Below, in pieces: positions 37,072 to 44,473 of a DNA stretch of 64,000 bases (position 1 is its first letter; every line of letters begins with the position of its first letter). Below the pieces are notes generated by a model. The model did no database searches. It saw nothing but the letters and a program-made list of their open reading frames with translations, and was not told where the DNA came from. Origin of the DNA: Bacteroidales bacterium (GTDB taxonomy: Bacteria; Bacteroidota; Bacteroidia; Bacteroidales; Marinilabiliaceae); contig JAKSLH010000004.1 in assembly GCA_024401335.1 (NCBI GenBank), positions 120,800 through 184,799 of the forward strand, in the 5' to 3' direction. A program made the translations under genes and the position numbers.

Positions 37072-37674
37072 ATGACTATCGAAGGTTTAATAATAGGACT
37101 TAGCGTCGGCGCCTCTTGTGTGGCATCATGCGGACCACTTATCATGTCGGTCATCATGAAGAACTCTCCTACCCCATCGGACGCCTATTCTTACCTGGGC
37201 CGTTTCATGGCTGGACGACTGATGGCTTACTTGGCTATAGCGGCTGTTACTGGCCTGATGCGCGGATGCCAGTGGCAGAGCGCAAAGGTGATGGCTGTCA
37301 TGTCGATTGCCGTAGGGGTAATGATGATTGTCAACGCTTTGGTTAAGCTGCCTTCTTATTGCGCAAAGGGTGTGGGCGTGAAGACTTACATACGTAGCCA
37401 TGCTCCGATGATGTACGTGCCTGCTCTGGGCTTCATCTCGAGCATCAACATCTGCCCTCCTGTCATCGCTGCGGCTACGGCTTCCCTCAACGCTCCTTCG
37501 ACGGCACAGGGCATAGGCACTTTCGTGCTGTTCTTCATCGGGTCATCTATCTATATGTTGCCCCTGCCTCTCATCTCGCTCTTTGAAGATAAGGAGGCTA
37601 TAAGGACTATCGGCCGTTTCATGTCGTGGATAATAGGGGTGATGTTCATCGTGAAGGGGTTAATCGGACTATAA
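37072..37674 (+). CDS. TauE/SafE-like (DsbD_2-type) membrane protein
   Basis: A 200-residue protein with about six transmembrane helices, typical of the sulfite exporter TauE/SafE or DsbD_2 type families. Conserved features are GASCVASCGPL in helix 1 (Cys16, Cys20) and INICPP in helix 4; these cysteines are at the positions used for thiol or metal handling in CcdA/DsbD-like proteins. It is the first gene of a three-gene operon with a NapH-like FeS protein and a small membrane-anchored protein. Together they suggest an electron-transfer or metal/sulfur system at the inner membrane. The substrate cannot be told from the sequence. Confidence 0.8.
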   Translation: MTIEGLIIGLSVGASCVASCGPLIMSVIMKNSPTPSDAYSYLGRFMAGRLMAYLAIAAVTGLMRGCQWQSAKVMAVMSIAVGVMMIVNALVKLPSYCAKGVGVKTYIRSHAPMMYVPALGFISSINICPPVIAAATASLNAPSTAQGIGTFVLFFIGSSIYMLPLPLISLFEDKEAIRTIGRFMSWIIGVMFIVKGLIGL

Positions 37675-37711
37675 AGACTAATAAGTATTAAATCAAAAAA
37701 TATCATATAAC

Positions 37712-38839
37712 ATGAAAAACAAGCTTTATTCTACGGGCAACGTGCTCAGAAGCATCTTGCTCACTCTCCCAATGACACTGATATCTATGATGATGCTTAG
37801 CCAGGGCGGACAGGCATTGGGAACATTGGAAGACACTTGCGTATATCTGGCTGCATGTGCAATCTACAACATTGCTTTCTTCTTGATGCTCTACAAGGGT
37901 GAAATCGACAAGTGGCGCGCTGTCGTGTTCGCCACATCGGCCGTGCTCTTCTCTGTTTCGTTCATGAACAACCTCATCGAACTTAGAGGTAGCGTGACCT
38001 ATTCCGATGCCGATGTCCTGTCGTGCGAGATTCCTTTCTGCCATATTGTGACTACTATGGTTGTGATTCCTGCTGCCATAAAGCAGACGATTATCTTCCC
38101 TGGCAGCATCATGACTGGCTTCGCTTCAATATCGGCTATGTTTGTGATTATCTTCGGCTCTAGCATCATTCTTGGCAGGGGCTTCTGCTCATGGGGCTGT
38201 TTCTATGGCGGATGGGACGACGCCTTCAGCCGCGTAGCGAAGAATCCTATCATAAAGAAGGTGAACGTGGCCTACCGTTGGTTCAGCTTCGCTATGCTTA
38301 TCATCATGGCTCTATGGTCGGCTGCCACTCTGGCTCCTGAATACTGCTCTTGGCTGTGCCCGTTCAAGCTCGTGACGGAACGCGACGCCATTGTCGATAC
38401 CGAGACTCTACTCAAGAATGTTGTCATGGTCATTCTTTTCCTGGGTCTTGTGGTGGTGCTTCCGCTGATTACTAAGAAGAGGATACAGTGTGCTACTTTC
38501 TGCCCTATGGGTGCTTTCGAATCGCTGTTCAACAAGATTAGCATCTTCCATGTGAAGAACAACGAGAGCAAATGTATCAAGTGCGGCAAATGCCAGAGAT
38601 CTTGCCCATTGCTGGCCATAGATAGCAAACTGAAGCCTCTCATCAACTGCTCTAAATGCGGCAAGTGCGTCGATGCCTGCCCTACGGGTGCTATGCAGTT
38701 CCATATCAAGGGCACTCCTGTGGGCACTAAGATCACAACGGCTCGTCTGCTGTTCCTCTACCCTGCCTACACGCTGATGGTGACTCTTATCGGTGGTAGC
38801 GTGGTCAATGCAATTAAGATTATTATCAACCTGTTTTAA
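37712..38839 (+). CDS. NapH/MauN-type membrane polyferredoxin
   Basis: A 375-residue protein with about six transmembrane helices and Cys clusters of the NapH/MauN type. Half-cluster motifs CSWGC and CSWLCP and CATFCP lie between helices, and two complete 4Fe-4S motifs CIKCGKCQRSCP and CSKCGKCVDACP lie near the C-terminus (about 288-330). These proteins pass electrons across or along the inner membrane, often from menaquinol; a menaquinone gene is present at 45165. It starts 37 bp after the TauE-like gene and 12 bp before the small third gene. It is not in a nap operon, so the electron acceptor is unknown. Confidence 0.88.
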   Translation: MKNKLYSTGNVLRSILLTLPMTLISMMMLSQGGQALGTLEDTCVYLAACAIYNIAFFLMLYKGEIDKWRAVVFATSAVLFSVSFMNNLIELRGSVTYSDADVLSCEIPFCHIVTTMVVIPAAIKQTIIFPGSIMTGFASISAMFVIIFGSSIILGRGFCSWGCFYGGWDDAFSRVAKNPIIKKVNVAYRWFSFAMLIIMALWSAATLAPEYCSWLCPFKLVTERDAIVDTETLLKNVVMVILFLGLVVVLPLITKKRIQCATFCPMGAFESLFNKISIFHVKNNESKCIKCGKCQRSCPLLAIDSKLKPLINCSKCGKCVDACPTGAMQFHIKGTPVGTKITTARLLFLYPAYTLMVTLIGGSVVNAIKIIINLF

Positions 38840-38851
38840 ATACCAATAGAG

Positions 38852-39235
38852 ATGAAATACATATCATATAGCATAGCGGCTACAATGACAATAATGATGA
38901 TGCTCATTTTTATCAATCTTGACGGATGGATGCAGATGGCGGCTCAGCTGCCTTTCATGAAGATCGACCCTACTATCACGGGCGGCGAAGTGGTCGATAG
39001 CATTGTGAGCGACAACTACAAGCTGTGGATTCACGAGGGTGTCCACCCTGGCCTCTTCGAAGACAAGAGTAGAACGATAACTCAGATCGACATCGAGGGC
39101 GACTACTACGGAAAGGTGACGGTGAACGGCAAACAATACGAACTCAACGCTACATCCCACGACGTAAAGGTTAACGGAGAAGAATACGCCGCTTCTTTCA
39201 AAAGAAAAAACGGATGGACTCTGAGAATCGAATAA
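38852..39235 (+). CDS. Small membrane-anchored protein, third gene of the FeS operon
   Basis: A 127-residue protein, family not recognised. One N-terminal hydrophobic segment (about 6-24) is a signal anchor; the rest is a beta-rich extracytoplasmic domain (DIEGDYYGKVTVNGKQYELNA). It has no cysteine, so it is not itself a redox centre. It sits 12 bp after the polyferredoxin and ends just before a strong terminator, so it is the last gene of that unit and probably an accessory subunit. Confidence 0.65.
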   Translation: MKYISYSIAATMTIMMMLIFINLDGWMQMAAQLPFMKIDPTITGGEVVDSIVSDNYKLWIHEGVHPGLFEDKSRTITQIDIEGDYYGKVTVNGKQYELNATSHDVKVNGEEYAASFKRKNGWTLRIE

Positions 39236-39577: not shown

Positions 39578-39610
39578 TATATTTGCATTGTAATTGTAAG
39601 AATAATTACA
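39578..39610 (+). promoter_or_regulatory. Promoter and dyad of the ATP-grasp cluster
   Basis: The -7 box TATATTTG lies at 39578-39585; no clear -33 TTG. TGTAATT (39589-39595) and AATTACA (39604-39610) form a 7-bp dyad with 8-bp spacer right at the predicted start site, where a repressor would block transcription. The leader to ATG 39655 is about 63 nt. Confidence 0.6.
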
Positions 39611-39654: not shown

Positions 39655-40974
39655 ATGTACACGCGACTATTAACACAAAAAGATGCGGTAAACAAGTGGA
39701 TGGAGAGATATGGCGTCCGCTTTGGAATCTACAAGAACGGGACGTTCAAAGAGCAGATTTTCCCGTTCGATGCAATACCGAGAGTGATAAGCAACAGCGA
39801 CTGGACTGAACTCGAAAAGGGTCTCAAGCAGCGCGTGGATGCTCTTAACGCTTTCTTGCGTGACATATACACCGAAAAGAGGATCATCAAGGACGGTGTT
39901 GTTCCAGAGGACTTTGTCTACTCATCTAAGGGCTACCTTCCTCAGTGCGAGGGCATAACGCCTTCTAAGGGTATCTTCTCCCACATTTCGGGCATCGACC
40001 TGGTGCAGGCTGAAGATGGCACCTGGTATGTCCTCGAAGACAACCTCAGAATACCTTCCGGCGCCTCTTACCCTATGATCGCGAGACAGCTCACCAGAAA
40101 GGCTTCGCCTGAGACATTCGACGGGGCAAAGGTTTTCGACAACCGCGACTACGCTCGTATGATTCGCGAAATGATGGATCATGTGAATGTCGATAACGGT
40201 CTTGAGGTGATACTGACTCCTGGCCGCTACAACTCGGCTTTCTTCGAACACTCCTACCTGGCCGAGAAGGCTGGCGTGGTGCTTGCCTTCCCCGACGATC
40301 TGTTCGTCGATGGCGATAAGGTGTACTACAAGGGTCTTTTCAACGAGAGGGAACGCGTGGGCGCTATCTACCGTAGATTGTCCGACGAATATCTCGACCC
40401 TATGACGTTCGAACGTTCGTCGCTCTTGGGCGTGCCTAACTTGTTCCAGGCTTACGCTAAGGGCAATGTCGCGATTGTCAACGCTCTCGGCAATGGCGTG
40501 GCCGACGATAAGGGTATCTACTACTTCGTGCCTAAGATGGTCGAATACTACCTCAACGAAAAACCTATTCTTAAGAACGCTCCAACTTATCTGCCTTTCT
40601 ACGAGAAGGATAGGAATTATGTACTGGAGAATCTCCATAAGCTCGTGATAAAGGATGTGGCCGAAGCGGGCGGCTATGGCGTGATGTTCGGCAGAGACAT
40701 GGACGAGAAGCGCCTCGAAGAGGTGAAGGAGCTCGTGCGCACTCAGCCTCGACGCTGGATCGCACAGGAGGTGATCAACTTTATCGACCTCGAGATTATG
40801 GAGGGCGACGAGAGGGTGATGAGAAAGGCCGATCTGAGAGCTTTCGTTGTCTCGGGCAAGGAGACGAAGGTGTGGCCTAGCGGCTTGACTCGTTTCACTA
40901 GAGACCCTAAGTCGTTTGTTGTCAACTCCTCACAGGGCGGCGGATTCAAGGATACTTGGGTAATGGCGGAGTAA
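39655..40974 (+). CDS. Circularly permuted ATP-grasp protein (type 2)
   Basis: A 439-residue protein of the circularly permuted ATP-grasp family (formerly DUF404/DUF407). These are predicted to form amide bonds using ATP, by analogy with other ATP-grasp ligases; no substrate is known. Recognisable parts are VLEDNLRIPSGASYP, a Mg-binding-like region (EDN), YNSAFFEHSYLAEKAG, FVDGDKVY, IYRRLSDEYLDP, and near the C-terminus the nucleotide-binding loop VIKDVAEAGGYGVMFG. Length is close to the usual 450-480. It is the first of five genes (alpha-E, transglutaminase, two AspA-like), 38 bp before the alpha-E gene. The family call is firm, the chemistry is inference. Confidence 0.9.
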   Translation: MYTRLLTQKDAVNKWMERYGVRFGIYKNGTFKEQIFPFDAIPRVISNSDWTELEKGLKQRVDALNAFLRDIYTEKRIIKDGVVPEDFVYSSKGYLPQCEGITPSKGIFSHISGIDLVQAEDGTWYVLEDNLRIPSGASYPMIARQLTRKASPETFDGAKVFDNRDYARMIREMMDHVNVDNGLEVILTPGRYNSAFFEHSYLAEKAGVVLAFPDDLFVDGDKVYYKGLFNERERVGAIYRRLSDEYLDPMTFERSSLLGVPNLFQAYAKGNVAIVNALGNGVADDKGIYYFVPKMVEYYLNEKPILKNAPTYLPFYEKDRNYVLENLHKLVIKDVAEAGGYGVMFGRDMDEKRLEEVKELVRTQPRRWIAQEVINFIDLEIMEGDERVMRKADLRAFVVSGKETKVWPSGLTRFTRDPKSFVVNSSQGGGFKDTWVMAE

Positions 40975-41012
40975 TAATCAATACGAATAAAAACATTTAA
41001 ACTTTTACAGAT

Positions 41013-41702
41013 ATGACGACCAAGATGTTTCTTTCAGCTATCTCTCCTGCTAAGGCAGACCGACTCTACTGGCTGGGCAGATATTCAGAACGTGTATGTA
41101 CTGTTCTCCATATACTACGCAAATACTACGATGCGATAATCGACGACGAGCACACTAATTCTCACAAGGTGTTCTGCTCTAAGATGGGCATCCCTTGCGA
41201 AGTGGAGAACTCTCGCGAATTTGTCCATAAATATCTCTACGACGAGACGCTCAACTACTCGGTTATCAATATGCTCGAACGTGTGAAGGACAACGCTATT
41301 CTTCTGAGGGAAGAACTCAAGAGCGAGAGTCTTCAGTATATAGAATTGGCTATCAACTTCATGAAGAGGGCTGGCGAGGAGGATCTTAAGCTCTACGACA
41401 TTCAGTATGTAACCGACGTGATGTATTCGTTCTGGGGCGCTGTCGAGGATAGAATATACAACTCTAAGGTGAGGGACATCATCACTTCTGGTAAATATAT
41501 CGAGAAGCTCGACCTCTATATCCGTTTTGGCTACGAGGCTGAACGCATCGAGGATGTGTTGTCAAGACTGGAAAGGGTCGATGCTTTCGAGGGCGATTTC
41601 TACAACACTACCGACTTCATCAACCTGAAACAGCGCATCGCAATGCCTGGCTTCAGCACTGAAGAGACGCTCAACGTTGTCAACAGTCTCTTCGCCGCAT
41701 AG
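41013..41702 (+). CDS. Alpha-E domain protein
   Basis: A 229-residue, all-helical protein of the alpha-E family (DUF403). The N-terminal signature ADRLYWLGRYSERVCTVLHIL matches the family closely; the remainder is acidic helices with RLERVD near the end. Alpha-E proteins nearly always occur beside, or fused to, the circularly permuted ATP-grasp protein and a transglutaminase-like protein, as here. The biochemical role is not known; a scaffold or substrate-holding partner is a guess. Spacing of 22 bp to the next gene with the GTG start used below. Confidence 0.9.
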   Translation: MTTKMFLSAISPAKADRLYWLGRYSERVCTVLHILRKYYDAIIDDEHTNSHKVFCSKMGIPCEVENSREFVHKYLYDETLNYSVINMLERVKDNAILLREELKSESLQYIELAINFMKRAGEEDLKLYDIQYVTDVMYSFWGAVEDRIYNSKVRDIITSGKYIEKLDLYIRFGYEAERIEDVLSRLERVDAFEGDFYNTTDFINLKQRIAMPGFSTEETLNVVNSLFAA

Positions 41703-41724
41703 AGTAGTAACCAAAGGTACTGGA

Positions 41725-42531
41725 GTGATTCTGAAGTACACATACCGCACGCTTATCACGTTTTCGACGCAGGTGTCTTCGCATACGTTCATGCTGCGAT
41801 GCACTCCCTACGCCAACGAATACCAGCGCCTCATTGAACATAAGACATCGGTCATCCCTAATTGTCTGCTGACAAGGAGCAACGACACTTTCGGCAGCAT
41901 ACTGGAGACTGGCTATGTCGCTGATATGCACGATGCGTTTATGTTCGAATCGACGGGTATCATCGAGATTGGCAACAACCGCAGCATCGAGAAGGTCAAC
42001 CCGCTTTTCCACTACCATTCTGAACTGACGACGCCCGACATGGCTATAAGGGATGCGGCTAGGCTGATCGGCATGGACATGTCTGTGACTGAATGGGTCA
42101 TGAGGTTGTCCGACTACCTGCAGGGCCACTTCCAATATGAGAGCGGTGCGACGAATGTGAAGACTACGGCCTCCGAAGCATTCTCGCTGGGCAAGGGTGT
42201 CTGCCAGGACTATGCCCATATTGCCATTGCAATGTGCAGGGAGGTCGGAATAGCGGCAAGGTATGTCAACGGGTTCATGATTGGTGAAGGGGCCACTCAC
42301 GCATGGATAGAATATCACGACGGAGAGCGGTGGCTGGGCTTCGACCCGACAAACAACAGGCCTGTTGATGATACTTACATCAAGATCGCTCACGGCAGAG
42401 ACTTCAACGACTGCTCCATCAACAGAGGTCGTTTCAACGGCATAGCGGAGCAAAACATTAAAGTGACATTGATGGTCGAACAGCTAAAGAAGCTGCCTAA
42501 AGAACAGACAAAACAAATAAAAAACCAATGA
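41725..42531 (+). CDS. Transglutaminase-like cysteine protease/amidase
   Basis: A 268-residue protein. The N-terminal beta domain (about 1-90; ILKYTYRTLITFSTQVSSHTFMLRC) is the bacterial transglutaminase N-terminal region; the core has a complete Cys-His-Asp triad, in GKGVCQDYAHI (Cys160), ATHAWIEY (His192) and GFDPTNN (Asp207). Such proteins mostly hydrolyse amide bonds; in this cluster type they are thought to cleave or trim the ligase product. There is no ATG at the start; GTG 41725 is preferred because AAAGG precedes it and it fits the family N-terminus. TTG 41677, overlapping the alpha-E gene by 26 bp, is the alternative. It overlaps the next gene by 4 bp (ATGA). Confidence 0.9.
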   Translation: MILKYTYRTLITFSTQVSSHTFMLRCTPYANEYQRLIEHKTSVIPNCLLTRSNDTFGSILETGYVADMHDAFMFESTGIIEIGNNRSIEKVNPLFHYHSELTTPDMAIRDAARLIGMDMSVTEWVMRLSDYLQGHFQYESGATNVKTTASEAFSLGKGVCQDYAHIAIAMCREVGIAARYVNGFMIGEGATHAWIEYHDGERWLGFDPTNNRPVDDTYIKIAHGRDFNDCSINRGRFNGIAEQNIKVTLMVEQLKKLPKEQTKQIKNQ

Positions 42532-43460
42532 TAAAGACAGTTGTTTCAGAAGACTTGCCCGTTCACGAAAGGCTTCTGATATATAAGAACGTCGTTGGAG
42601 CCAAGGGCAAAGACGGTAAGCGTATCTGCATCGTCACAGGCATACACGGCGACGAACTCGAGGGACAATACGTATGCTACGAATTGCTACGTCGCCTCAA
42701 CGAACAGACTAATGAACTACATGGCCAGGTGGAAGTCTACCCTGCTATCAACCCTCTCGGTGTGGACAGCGTGACGCGTGGCATTCCTACATTCGACCTC
42801 GACATGAACAGGATATTCCCTGGCTCACCTAACGGCCACATGGTGGAGAACGTGGCGCACCAGGTGGTCGAGGATCTGAAGGGGGCCGACTTGGTGATCG
42901 ACATCCACTCTTCCAACATATATCTCTACGAGGTGCCACAGGCTCGCATCTCTAACATATACGCCGACAAGCTCTATCCTATGGCGGAGAAGCTCAACCT
43001 CGACTTTATCTGGATTCACGAGGCTGCAACGGTGCTCGAGGCTACAATAGCTCACTCTCTCAACTCGGCCAACACACCGACTATTGTTGTGGAGATGGGC
43101 ATCGGCATGAAGATAACACGCGAATATGGCGACCGTCTTGTTGACGGCATCCTCAACTTGCTTACCGACATGGGTGTGTGGACTGGCAATAAGCCTACTG
43201 AGGTGACTCAGCCTATCGACTCACGCACTGGCGACGTGAGCTTCATCAACGCTTCTCGCTCTGGTGTCATCATAAGCGCACTGCCTCATGGCACAAGGGT
43301 CAAGAAGGGCGACACGATCTGCCAGCTGGTCAACACACTGGATGGCACGGTGCAGGAAGAGGTGAAGAGTCCTGTTGACGGACTGTTGTTTACCGTGCGT
43401 AGCTACCCTATCGTTTATGAGGGTTCGCTCATCGCACGCATATTCAGAGACAAGGAGTAA
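42528..43460 (+). CDS. AspA/AstE-like zinc deacylase (active-site complete)
   Basis: A 310-residue protein of the succinylglutamate desuccinylase/aspartoacylase family (M14-like). All metal and catalytic residues are there: GIHGDELEG (His40, Glu43), VIDIHSS (His127) and IVVEMG (Glu189). The substrate carboxylate-binding DLDMNRIFPG is also kept. The C-terminal beta domain (about 230-310; VKKGDTICQL, VKSPVDGLLF) is usual for the family. The enzyme should remove an acyl or aminoacyl group from an amino-acid amide. The ATGA overlap with the transglutaminase gene links it to the ligase cluster. The natural substrate is unknown. Confidence 0.88.
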   Translation: MIKTVVSEDLPVHERLLIYKNVVGAKGKDGKRICIVTGIHGDELEGQYVCYELLRRLNEQTNELHGQVEVYPAINPLGVDSVTRGIPTFDLDMNRIFPGSPNGHMVENVAHQVVEDLKGADLVIDIHSSNIYLYEVPQARISNIYADKLYPMAEKLNLDFIWIHEAATVLEATIAHSLNSANTPTIVVEMGIGMKITREYGDRLVDGILNLLTDMGVWTGNKPTEVTQPIDSRTGDVSFINASRSGVIISALPHGTRVKKGDTICQLVNTLDGTVQEEVKSPVDGLLFTVRSYPIVYEGSLIARIFRDKE

Positions 43461-43466
43461 GGCTAT

Positions 43467-44393
43467 ATGAAACAGACTAACATATTCACAATGAAGTCGC
43501 CTTTCCGCGACGACTTCGCAATACCAGGATATTACTTCGGCAACGGCGAAAAGACGGTTGCTATAGTAGGATCGATGCGTGGAGACGAGATACAGCAGCT
43601 CTTTGTCGCATCACAGGTGGTAAAGAACCTGACAAGACTTGAAGAGGCCGGAATGATATCTAAGGACCACGGCATTCTCGTTATACCATCAGCCAACCAC
43701 TATTCTATCAACATACATAAGCGTTTCTGGGCCATGGACAATACCGACATCAACCGTATGTTCCCTGGCTACGACCAAGGAGAGACGACACAGCGCGTAG
43801 CGGCCGCTATCTTCGAAGCTGTGAGAGGTTACGAATATGGCATACAGCTCGCCTCATACTACCTGAGCGGCAACTTCGTCCCTCATGTGAGAGTGATGGA
43901 CACTGGCTACCAGGACACCGACGACGCTAAGGCTTTCGGCTTGCCATACGTCTATGTCTATGAGCCTAAGCCTTTCGACACTTGCGTGTTAAACTACAAC
44001 TGGCAGGTGTTCGAGACGAAAGCTTTCTCGGTGTATAGCGGATCAACAGATACAATAGAGAAGGAGATGGCTAAGATGACGTGGCTCTCTATATTGCGAT
44101 TCCTCGACTCTAAGGGGATAATAAAGCACCCTTGCCACGGCGGATATCAGCCCTACATCTTCAACAAATCATCACTCCACACCATTGTGTCGAAGCAGGC
44201 AGGACTCTTCTACGTCCAGTGCAAGGTCGGACAACAGGTGCGACAGGGCGACATACTGGCCAAGATACTCGACCCATACACTGGCGAGACAAAGACGCTC
44301 ATCGAGTCACCTGTCAACGGAACGATATTCTTTGCTCATGTACGTCCTCTGATTCACCAACATTCACAGATGTTCCAGATACTAGAATTCTAG
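43467..44393 (+). CDS. AspA/AstE-like paralogue lacking zinc ligands (probable pseudoenzyme)
   Basis: A 308-residue homologue of the preceding gene, 6 bp downstream. The fold-defining parts are kept, including DINRMFPG (substrate carboxylate site) and the C-terminal beta domain (VRQGDILAKILDPYTG, IESPVNGTIFF). However the first zinc motif reads GSMRGDE, with Arg38 where His is needed; the second reads YGIQLAS, with Gln127 in place of His; and the segment matching the catalytic Glu reads FSVYSG. Zinc hydrolysis is therefore unlikely. It may bind the substrate or form a heterodimer with the active partner. The reading frame is intact and codon use is normal, so it is not a pseudogene. Confidence 0.8.
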   Translation: MKQTNIFTMKSPFRDDFAIPGYYFGNGEKTVAIVGSMRGDEIQQLFVASQVVKNLTRLEEAGMISKDHGILVIPSANHYSINIHKRFWAMDNTDINRMFPGYDQGETTQRVAAAIFEAVRGYEYGIQLASYYLSGNFVPHVRVMDTGYQDTDDAKAFGLPYVYVYEPKPFDTCVLNYNWQVFETKAFSVYSGSTDTIEKEMAKMTWLSILRFLDSKGIIKHPCHGGYQPYIFNKSSLHTIVSKQAGLFYVQCKVGQQVRQGDILAKILDPYTGETKTLIESPVNGTIFFAHVRPLIHQHSQMFQILEF

Positions 44394-44436: not shown

Positions 44437-44473
44437 GAGGGGCGACGCATCAATATGCACCGCCCCTCATTTA
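44437..44473 (+). terminator. Terminator of the ATP-grasp cluster
   Basis: GAGGGGCG (44437-44444) pairs with CGCCCCTC (44461-44468), extended inside by GCAT/ATGC, then ATTTAT. Strong stem, weak T-tract. Confidence 0.7.

What the first reader, a model, noticed from the sequence alone, without database searches (positions are those of the whole stretch)
39655..44393. ATP-grasp / alpha-E / transglutaminase cluster with a pair of AspA-like proteins
Five genes are packed behind one promoter, with overlaps or very short gaps (ATGA between transglutaminase and the first AspA-like gene, 6 bp between the two AspA-like genes) and one terminator. The core trio (circularly permuted ATP-grasp, alpha-E, transglutaminase) has been predicted from comparative genomics to build and cleave amide bonds, without a known product. 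The addition of an intact zinc deacylase and a second, active-site-less paralogue suggests a complete make-and-break cycle for an unknown acyl- or aminoacyl-amide. This is the best candidate here for an undescribed system.
Basis: partly seen in the sequence, partly recalled or inferred. Interest (0 to 1): 0.85.

Follow-up and report, generated by a model that had tools for sequence, protein, structure and literature searches.

The report
Five-gene amide make-and-break cassette
Five neighbouring genes, three that look able to join and transfer amide bonds and two related to zinc enzymes that cut them (one with its zinc site destroyed), travel together as one unit through several groups of bacteria, many of them from animal guts, and this unit gives a new handle on a bacterial system whose job is unknown.

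Summary
The five genes are real and form a self-contained cassette: ATP-grasp, Alpha-E, transglutaminase, Asp1, Asp2. A GTDB scan with Asp2 confirmed 326 relatives; of the best 80 loci, 69 hold all five genes (68 in one order and strand), 8 are cut by contig ends, 1 is split over two contigs, 2 lack the ATP-grasp. Titles name five phyla; flanks are not conserved. The ATP-grasp groups apart from that of the known trio operon and keeps its nucleotide-site residues. Asp1 keeps zinc ligands and catalytic Glu in 82 of 82; Asp2 has lost them (H to R 86/86, H to A 81/86, E to Y 82/86) but keeps pocket residues: a conserved pseudo-hydrolase. Anbu, the hydrolase of the known operon, was not found in 6 cassette genomes or in 50 reached through named loci. 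In 200 Lachnospiraceae genomes dependence is one-sided: 26 of 27 with this ATP-grasp have Asp2, but 24 of 50 with Asp2 lack a strong ATP-grasp match. I read it as an amide or isopeptide make-and-break system whose hydrolytic half can stand alone. Substrate unknown. New variant of a known kind.

The parts
39578..39585 (+). TAnnTTTG box, possible Bacteroides-type promoter element (consensus recalled)
   Evidence: weak: 25% of shuffled upstream stretches contain one
39655..40974 (+). circularly permuted ATP-grasp ligase, 439 aa
   Evidence: (3n6x, E 5.9e-106)
41013..41702 (+). short Alpha-E protein, 229 aa, all-helical in the prediction
41725..42531 (+). transglutaminase-like protein, probable GTG start; Cys-His-Asp conserved (C160, H192, D207 of the 268-aa form)
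42528..43460 (+). Asp1: AstE/AspA-type zinc amidohydrolase with intact metal site (H40, E43, H127) and catalytic E189 (residue roles recalled for the family)
43467..44393 (+). Asp2: AstE/AspA-fold pseudo-hydrolase (R38, A129, Y190 in place of zinc ligands and catalytic Glu; pocket residues kept)
44437..44468 (+). strong hairpin after Asp2, possible terminator with a weak U tract

Best explanation
A self-contained make-and-break cassette for an amide or isopeptide of an amino acid or peptide. Step 1 (inferred from family chemistry): the ATP-grasp activates a carboxylate as an acyl phosphate and joins it to an amine, with Alpha-E as a partner of unknown mechanism. Step 2 (inferred): the Cys-His-Asp transglutaminase transfers or releases the acyl part. 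Step 3 (inferred; conserved catalytic residues shown): Asp1, a zinc amidohydrolase related to DoeB and CphZ, cleaves the product, which should carry a free carboxylate that the conserved Asn-Arg pair can hold. Asp2 (shown: metal and catalytic residues lost, pocket residues kept) is a non-catalytic partner that binds the same kind of group and regulates Asp1 or sets its specificity, probably in a hetero-oligomer (inferred). In gene content, and in the two classic loci of the window's own order also in position, Asp1-Asp2 stand where the N-terminal-nucleophile hydrolase Anbu stands. Because the pair also occurs alone, its substrate must also be available without the trio, from food, other microbes or another pathway.
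Against: No substrate, product or assay for any of the five. Comparison of the flanks gave no shared transporter, oxidoreductase or other gene of 80 aa or more that would name the product (shorter ORFs were not compared). Replacement of Anbu is an inference: of 20 classic Bacteroidota regions read, only 3 carry Anbu, in two of these Anbu lies between Alpha-E and the transglutaminase rather than after it, and Anbu is rare in this order anyway (2 of 247 genomes have the classic ligase clearly), so 0 of 50 is weak by itself. The cassette ATP-grasp sits on a long branch (2.05 changes per column) and may have drifted to another chemistry. In 8 of 86 Asp2 a His stands two residues before the lost ligand position, so a shifted metal site in a minority is not excluded. 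Alpha-E has no fold match that helps. Gene order and co-inheritance do not prove that the five act on one molecule.
Confidence: 0.42

Rival explanations
1. Peptide-tagging of proteins: the trio attaches an amino acid or peptide to proteins and Asp1-Asp2 removes it, as was proposed for the Anbu operon.
For: Papers on the Anbu operon report this proposal (PMC6376114 and PMC5666114, passages); RimK-RimB is an ATP-grasp/hydrolase precedent (PMC12239564, passages).
Against: The relatives of Asp1 named in the structure titles act on small molecules (DoeB, CphZ). 24 of 50 Asp2-bearing Lachnospiraceae genomes have no strong match to this ATP-grasp, so there no such tag would be made by this ligase.
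Confidence: 0.2
2. Producer and immunity, or producer and consumer: the trio makes an amide compound that leaves the cell; Asp1-Asp2 protects the maker or recovers the compound, and orphan pairs belong to competitors or cross-feeders that degrade it.
For: One-sided co-occurrence (26 of 27 against 26 of 50); orphan pairs with intact signatures scattered among cassette pairs in the tree; in Galacturonibacter the orphan pair follows an ABC importer (PF04392, BPD_transp_2, ABC_tran).
Against: No conserved flanking gene, so no shared exporter. The importer was identified beside one orphan pair only; the flanks of the ten other orphan pairs were compared by clustering, not annotated, and no cluster holds that importer's binding protein. 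All five window proteins look cytoplasmic on reading; no signal-sequence predictor was run.
Confidence: 0.12
3. Nitrogen-scavenging by acyl capping: an amine is capped by ATP-dependent ligation, processed by ordinary cell enzymes, and uncapped by Asp1-Asp2, as in the gamma-glutamyl routes for putrescine and other amines (recalled).
For: In Pseudomonas putida a circularly permuted ATP-grasp gene and a 'bacterial proteasome, beta subunit' gene (which I take for Anbu) rise on nitrate versus ammonium (PMC8050072, table passage); two trio genes stand in the table of the Burkholderia NtrC regulon with values -8.2 and -9.4 (PMC5491218, table passage).
Against: No amine oxidase or dehydrogenase travels with the cassette; no regulatory data in Bacteroidales.
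Confidence: 0.18
4. Two unrelated modules that merely share a promoter: trio and Asp pair have separate jobs.
For: The pair occurs without the trio.
Against: The cassette-type ATP-grasp is almost never without the pair (6 of 6 and 26 of 27; the exception, G708, is a truncated remnant in which no Alpha-E was found), order is kept across five phyla, in one Tannerella locus pair and trio are re-arranged yet adjacent (L090), and in one Treponema bin the five are split over two contigs yet all kept (L084 and L274).
Confidence: 0.06

Closest known systems
ATP-grasp / Alpha-E / transglutaminase / Anbu operon (Iyer et al. 2009 prediction, as reported in PMC5666114 and PMC6376114)
   Same: Same first three families in the same order; catalytic residues kept
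   Different: Anbu absent; two AspA-fold proteins follow instead; ATP-grasp groups apart; Alpha-E is about 80-100 residues shorter and aligns only with the first part of the family model
DoeB/EutE N-acetyl-2,4-diaminobutyrate deacetylase (6twl, 6twm; NCBIfam TIGR02994)
   Same: Fold, zinc ligands and length of Asp1; best NCBIfam match
   Different: Asp1 scores 76.2 and Asp2 35.4 bits against an equivalog cut-off of 402.7; second, zinc-less partner
CphZ cyanophycin dipeptide (beta-Asp-Arg) hydrolase (8ein, 8eip)
   Different: Pair instead of single enzyme; circularly permuted ligase with Alpha-E and transglutaminase; genome not searched for cyanophycin synthetase
RimK-RimB and RloA-B-C operons (PMC12239564, passages)
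   Same: ATP-grasp ligase with a dedicated hydrolase; in Rlo also an (inactive) transglutaminase
   Different: Hydrolases are retropepsin-like, not zinc AspA-type; no Alpha-E named

Membership tests
ATP-grasp/Alpha-E/transglutaminase (Anbu-type) operon | circularly permuted ATP-grasp with nucleotide-site residues | tested here: met
   Pfam PF14403/PF04174; 12 positions kept in 69 of 69 (residue roles recalled; a 13th, E372, in 66 of 69)
ATP-grasp/Alpha-E/transglutaminase (Anbu-type) operon | Alpha-E protein next to it | tested here: met
   PF04168 above cut-off (61.5 vs 20.8 bits), but only model positions 6-164; much the same in four other cassette genes
ATP-grasp/Alpha-E/transglutaminase (Anbu-type) operon | transglutaminase with Cys-His-Asp | tested here: met
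   near-invariant in 78 sequences
ATP-grasp/Alpha-E/transglutaminase (Anbu-type) operon | Anbu N-terminal-nucleophile hydrolase in the operon | tested here: not met
   no match in the window's genome, in 5 other cassette genomes or in 50 genomes reached through named loci; same query rang in 5 of 5 controls
AstE/AspA zinc amidohydrolase (Asp1) | H-x-x-E ... H zinc site and catalytic Glu | tested here: met
   82 of 82
AstE/AspA zinc amidohydrolase (Asp2) | H-x-x-E ... H zinc site and catalytic Glu | tested here: not met
   R in 86/86, A in 81/86, Y in 82/86 at three of the four positions; fold kept
DoeB deacetylase equivalog (TIGR02994) | score above the curated cut-off | tested here: not met
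   76.2 and 35.4 bits against 402.7
Cyanophycin pathway (CphZ) | beta-Asp-Arg hydrolysis | not testable with these tools
   only fold and weak sequence similarity

The most novel reading that the evidence does not exclude
The trio makes a so far unknown exchangeable amide metabolite in gut anaerobes, and the Asp1-Asp2 pair (an active zinc hydrolase held to a zinc-less sister that senses the same molecule) is its universal consumer or immunity unit, carried alone by many neighbours. That would also identify the unknown product of the Anbu operon as an amide with a free carboxylate.
Probability: 0.12. Interest if true: 0.9.

Novelty: new variant of a known kind. Interest (0 to 1): 0.62.

Why it matters
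The ATP-grasp/Alpha-E/transglutaminase operon was predicted in 2009 to make or modify peptides, no product is named in the papers seen here, and purified Anbu showed no activity on the peptide substrates tried (PMC6376114, passages). Here a related trio travels with a zinc hydrolase whose relatives have defined small-molecule chemistry, so a substrate screen becomes feasible: find what Asp1-Asp2 cleaves, then ask whether the trio makes it. The conserved zinc-less partner is a second testable point.

Full report
OBSERVATION. The five ORFs lie where stated and belong to the stated families by Pfam. The transglutaminase most likely starts at GTG 41725. The gaps are 38 bp (ATP-grasp to Alpha-E), 22 bp (Alpha-E stop to GTG 41725), a 4 bp overlap and 6 bp. 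Promoter evidence is weak; a strong hairpin, perhaps a terminator, follows Asp2. tRNA-Pro lies beyond on the other strand.

CONSERVATION IN THE ORDER. In 247 genomes of the window's order, 12 match Asp2; 6 of these, from five families, do so at 52-100% identity and have an adjacent Asp1, and the other 6 have weak matches (21-23% identity). Regions fetched from the five other strong genomes show all five genes in the same order. A search of 247 genomes of the order with the ATP-grasp profile gave 11 matches: strong ones (E below 1e-200) in exactly these 6, the classic type in two further genomes (G490, E 6.9e-82; G536, E 8.6e-134) and weak or fragment matches in three. Alpha-E is present once in the window's genome.

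CONSERVATION BEYOND. A scan of 84,980 species genomes with the Asp2 profile confirmed 326 relatives, of which the best 80 were kept. Among these 80, 69 hold all five genes: 64 in order on one strand (one of them, L066, with two extra weak transglutaminase hits elsewhere), 4 in order with the ATP-grasp read in two frames, and 1 (L090, Tannerella) with the trio on the opposite strand next to the pair. Of the other 11, eight are cut by a contig end; for one of these, L103, the ATP-grasp was found at the end of another contig. L084 (Treponema bin) is split: transglutaminase-Asp1-Asp2 there, ATP-grasp and Alpha-E in the middle of another contig with no transglutaminase or Asp beside them. Two lack the ligase: L136 (Candidatus Galacturonibacter) and L085 (another Treponema bin, transglutaminase in two frames); no ATP-grasp of this type was found in either genome. 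By record title 64 of the 80 are Bacteroidota, 6 Desulfovibrionaceae, 5 Bacillota, 4 Spirochaetota and 1 Fibrobacterota; most are metagenome bins, and titles can be wrong. Neighbouring genes outside the five are not shared: the commonest cluster of ORFs of 80 aa or more occurs in 6 of 85 loci. Gaps inside are short (medians 54, 27, 13 and 21 bp; nine gaps exceed 300 bp). The trees place Spirochaetota, Fibrobacterota and Desulfovibrionaceae members among Bacteroidota for ATP-grasp and Asp1, and the first two also for Asp2, which suggests horizontal spread of the whole cassette.

THE LIGASE HALF. The ATP-grasp matches solved 3n6x, named a putative glutathionylspermidine synthase (E 5.9e-106). 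In a tree of 25 cassette and 19 classic sequences each set lies on one side of a fully supported branch (100/99, in 100% of bootstrap trees), though the program warns that long branches meet there. D115, E128, N130, R132, K333, G339, G340, Y341, G342, Q371, D393 and R395 are kept in 69 of 69 (6 partial or split rows were dropped). That these positions bind ATP and magnesium is recalled family knowledge. The transglutaminase keeps Cys, His and Asp (78 rows, 2 dropped). Alpha-E is predicted as an all-helical protein with good confidence (mean pLDDT 90.8); no informative fold match.

RELATION TO ANBU. In 20 classic Bacteroidota regions (chosen by me from 18 of the 118 genomes with Alpha-E) the trio or parts of it stand without any Asp pair, and 3 carry Anbu; its identity was confirmed by Pfam (Proteasome) and by solved Anbu chains (E down to 8.5e-30). 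The Anbu query found nothing in 6 cassette genomes and rang in all 5 controls (three of the controls had been chosen because they carry Anbu, G490 and G536 had not). It found nothing in 50 genomes reached through loci, L136 among them (I gave 50 of the 80 because of the limit). In G490 and G536, which belong to the window's order, Anbu directly follows the transglutaminase, the place that Asp1 has in cassettes; in L176 and L178 it lies between Alpha-E and the transglutaminase, and in L186 no transglutaminase follows. So replacement holds for content and partly for position.

ONE-SIDED DEPENDENCE. In 200 genomes of the family of G638 (taken as Lachnospiraceae from the placement of Galacturonibacter, recalled), 50 have a strong Asp2 match (E below 1e-90) and 3 more only weak ones. 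The ATP-grasp is strong (E below 1e-60) in 27 and fragmentary in 5. The cut-offs were set after seeing the lists. Of the 27, 26 also have Asp2; the other, G708, is a truncated remnant in which no Alpha-E was found. Of the 50, 24 lack a strong ATP-grasp match, and 22 of these lack any match; incomplete bins may account for some. Of 20 regions fetched around Asp2 in this family (mostly the best-scoring), ten hold a pair without the trio beside it; with L136 that makes 11. One of the ten, G803, has the trio on another contig that ends just after the transglutaminase, so its state is open. These 11 pairs keep the signatures (Asp1 H40 and E43 in 9 of 9 rows that reach there, H127 and E189 in 11 of 11; Asp2 R38 and Y190 in 11 of 11, position 129 A in 8 and T in 3) and are scattered among cassette pairs in the Asp2 tree (5 changes of state on the best tree, 2 forced by well-supported branches; L085 was counted with the orphans). 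So the pair persists without the trio but the trio hardly exists without the pair.

MECHANISM. Shown: gene content, order, residues, co-occurrence. Inferred: amide formation by the ATP-grasp, acyl transfer by the transglutaminase, hydrolysis by Asp1, sensing or holding by Asp2. I prefer a small-molecule amide or isopeptide over a protein tag because the relatives of Asp1 with named activity act on small molecules and because the pair persists without the ligase. Reports on the classic operon point to nitrogen: in Pseudomonas putida an ATP-grasp gene of this kind and a gene named bacterial proteasome beta subunit rise on nitrate against ammonium (PMC8050072, table passage), two trio genes are in the NtrC table of Burkholderia cenocepacia (PMC5491218, table passage), and trio domains group with urea use in marine metagenomes (PMC3597751, passages). 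PMC5666114 (passages) also reports no change of expression under various conditions and dispensability without stress. Whether any of this holds in Bacteroidales is untested.

NOVELTY. The trio, its order and a link to a hydrolase were predicted in 2009 and are described in PMC5666114 and PMC6376114 (passages). The replacement hydrolase pair, its conserved inactive partner, the distinct ATP-grasp group and the one-sided dependence were not seen in what searches listed; the 2009 paper itself could not be read.

Noticed in passing
window 37072-39235 (+): Small cluster upstream: a DsbD_2-domain membrane protein, a NapH/MauN-like polyferredoxin membrane protein (375 aa) and a 127-aa protein with no Pfam or NCBIfam match; perhaps a redox or metal-handling set.
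   Followed up: no
L174 1057-3735, L190, L179: In some Bacteroidota the classic ATP-grasp and Alpha-E are fused in one protein of about 850-900 aa (L174, L190; in L179 the Alpha-E match lies in an 859-aa frame), in L179 next to a 1110-aa transglutaminase protein.
   Followed up: no
L136 3972-6937: In Galacturonibacter the orphan Asp1-Asp2 pair directly follows a PF04392/BPD_transp_2/ABC_tran importer, of a kind linked to aromatic amino acids (the link is recalled); a possible clue to the substrate.
   Followed up: partly
L271: An orphan Asp pair faces a convergent 856-aa protein that matches the transglutaminase profile.
   Followed up: no
L087 5355-5460; L118 2014-2258: TPP riboswitch soon after the cassette in a Spirochaetaceae bin; T-box leader near the cassette, other strand, in a Clostridiales bin.
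   Followed up: no
Phylum sample, family f18: 62 of the 86 Alpha-E-bearing genomes outside the window's class belong to one family with genomes of about 1.6-3.3 Mb (genera g49, g54); the one region read (L177) has the trio without Anbu or Asp.
   Followed up: no
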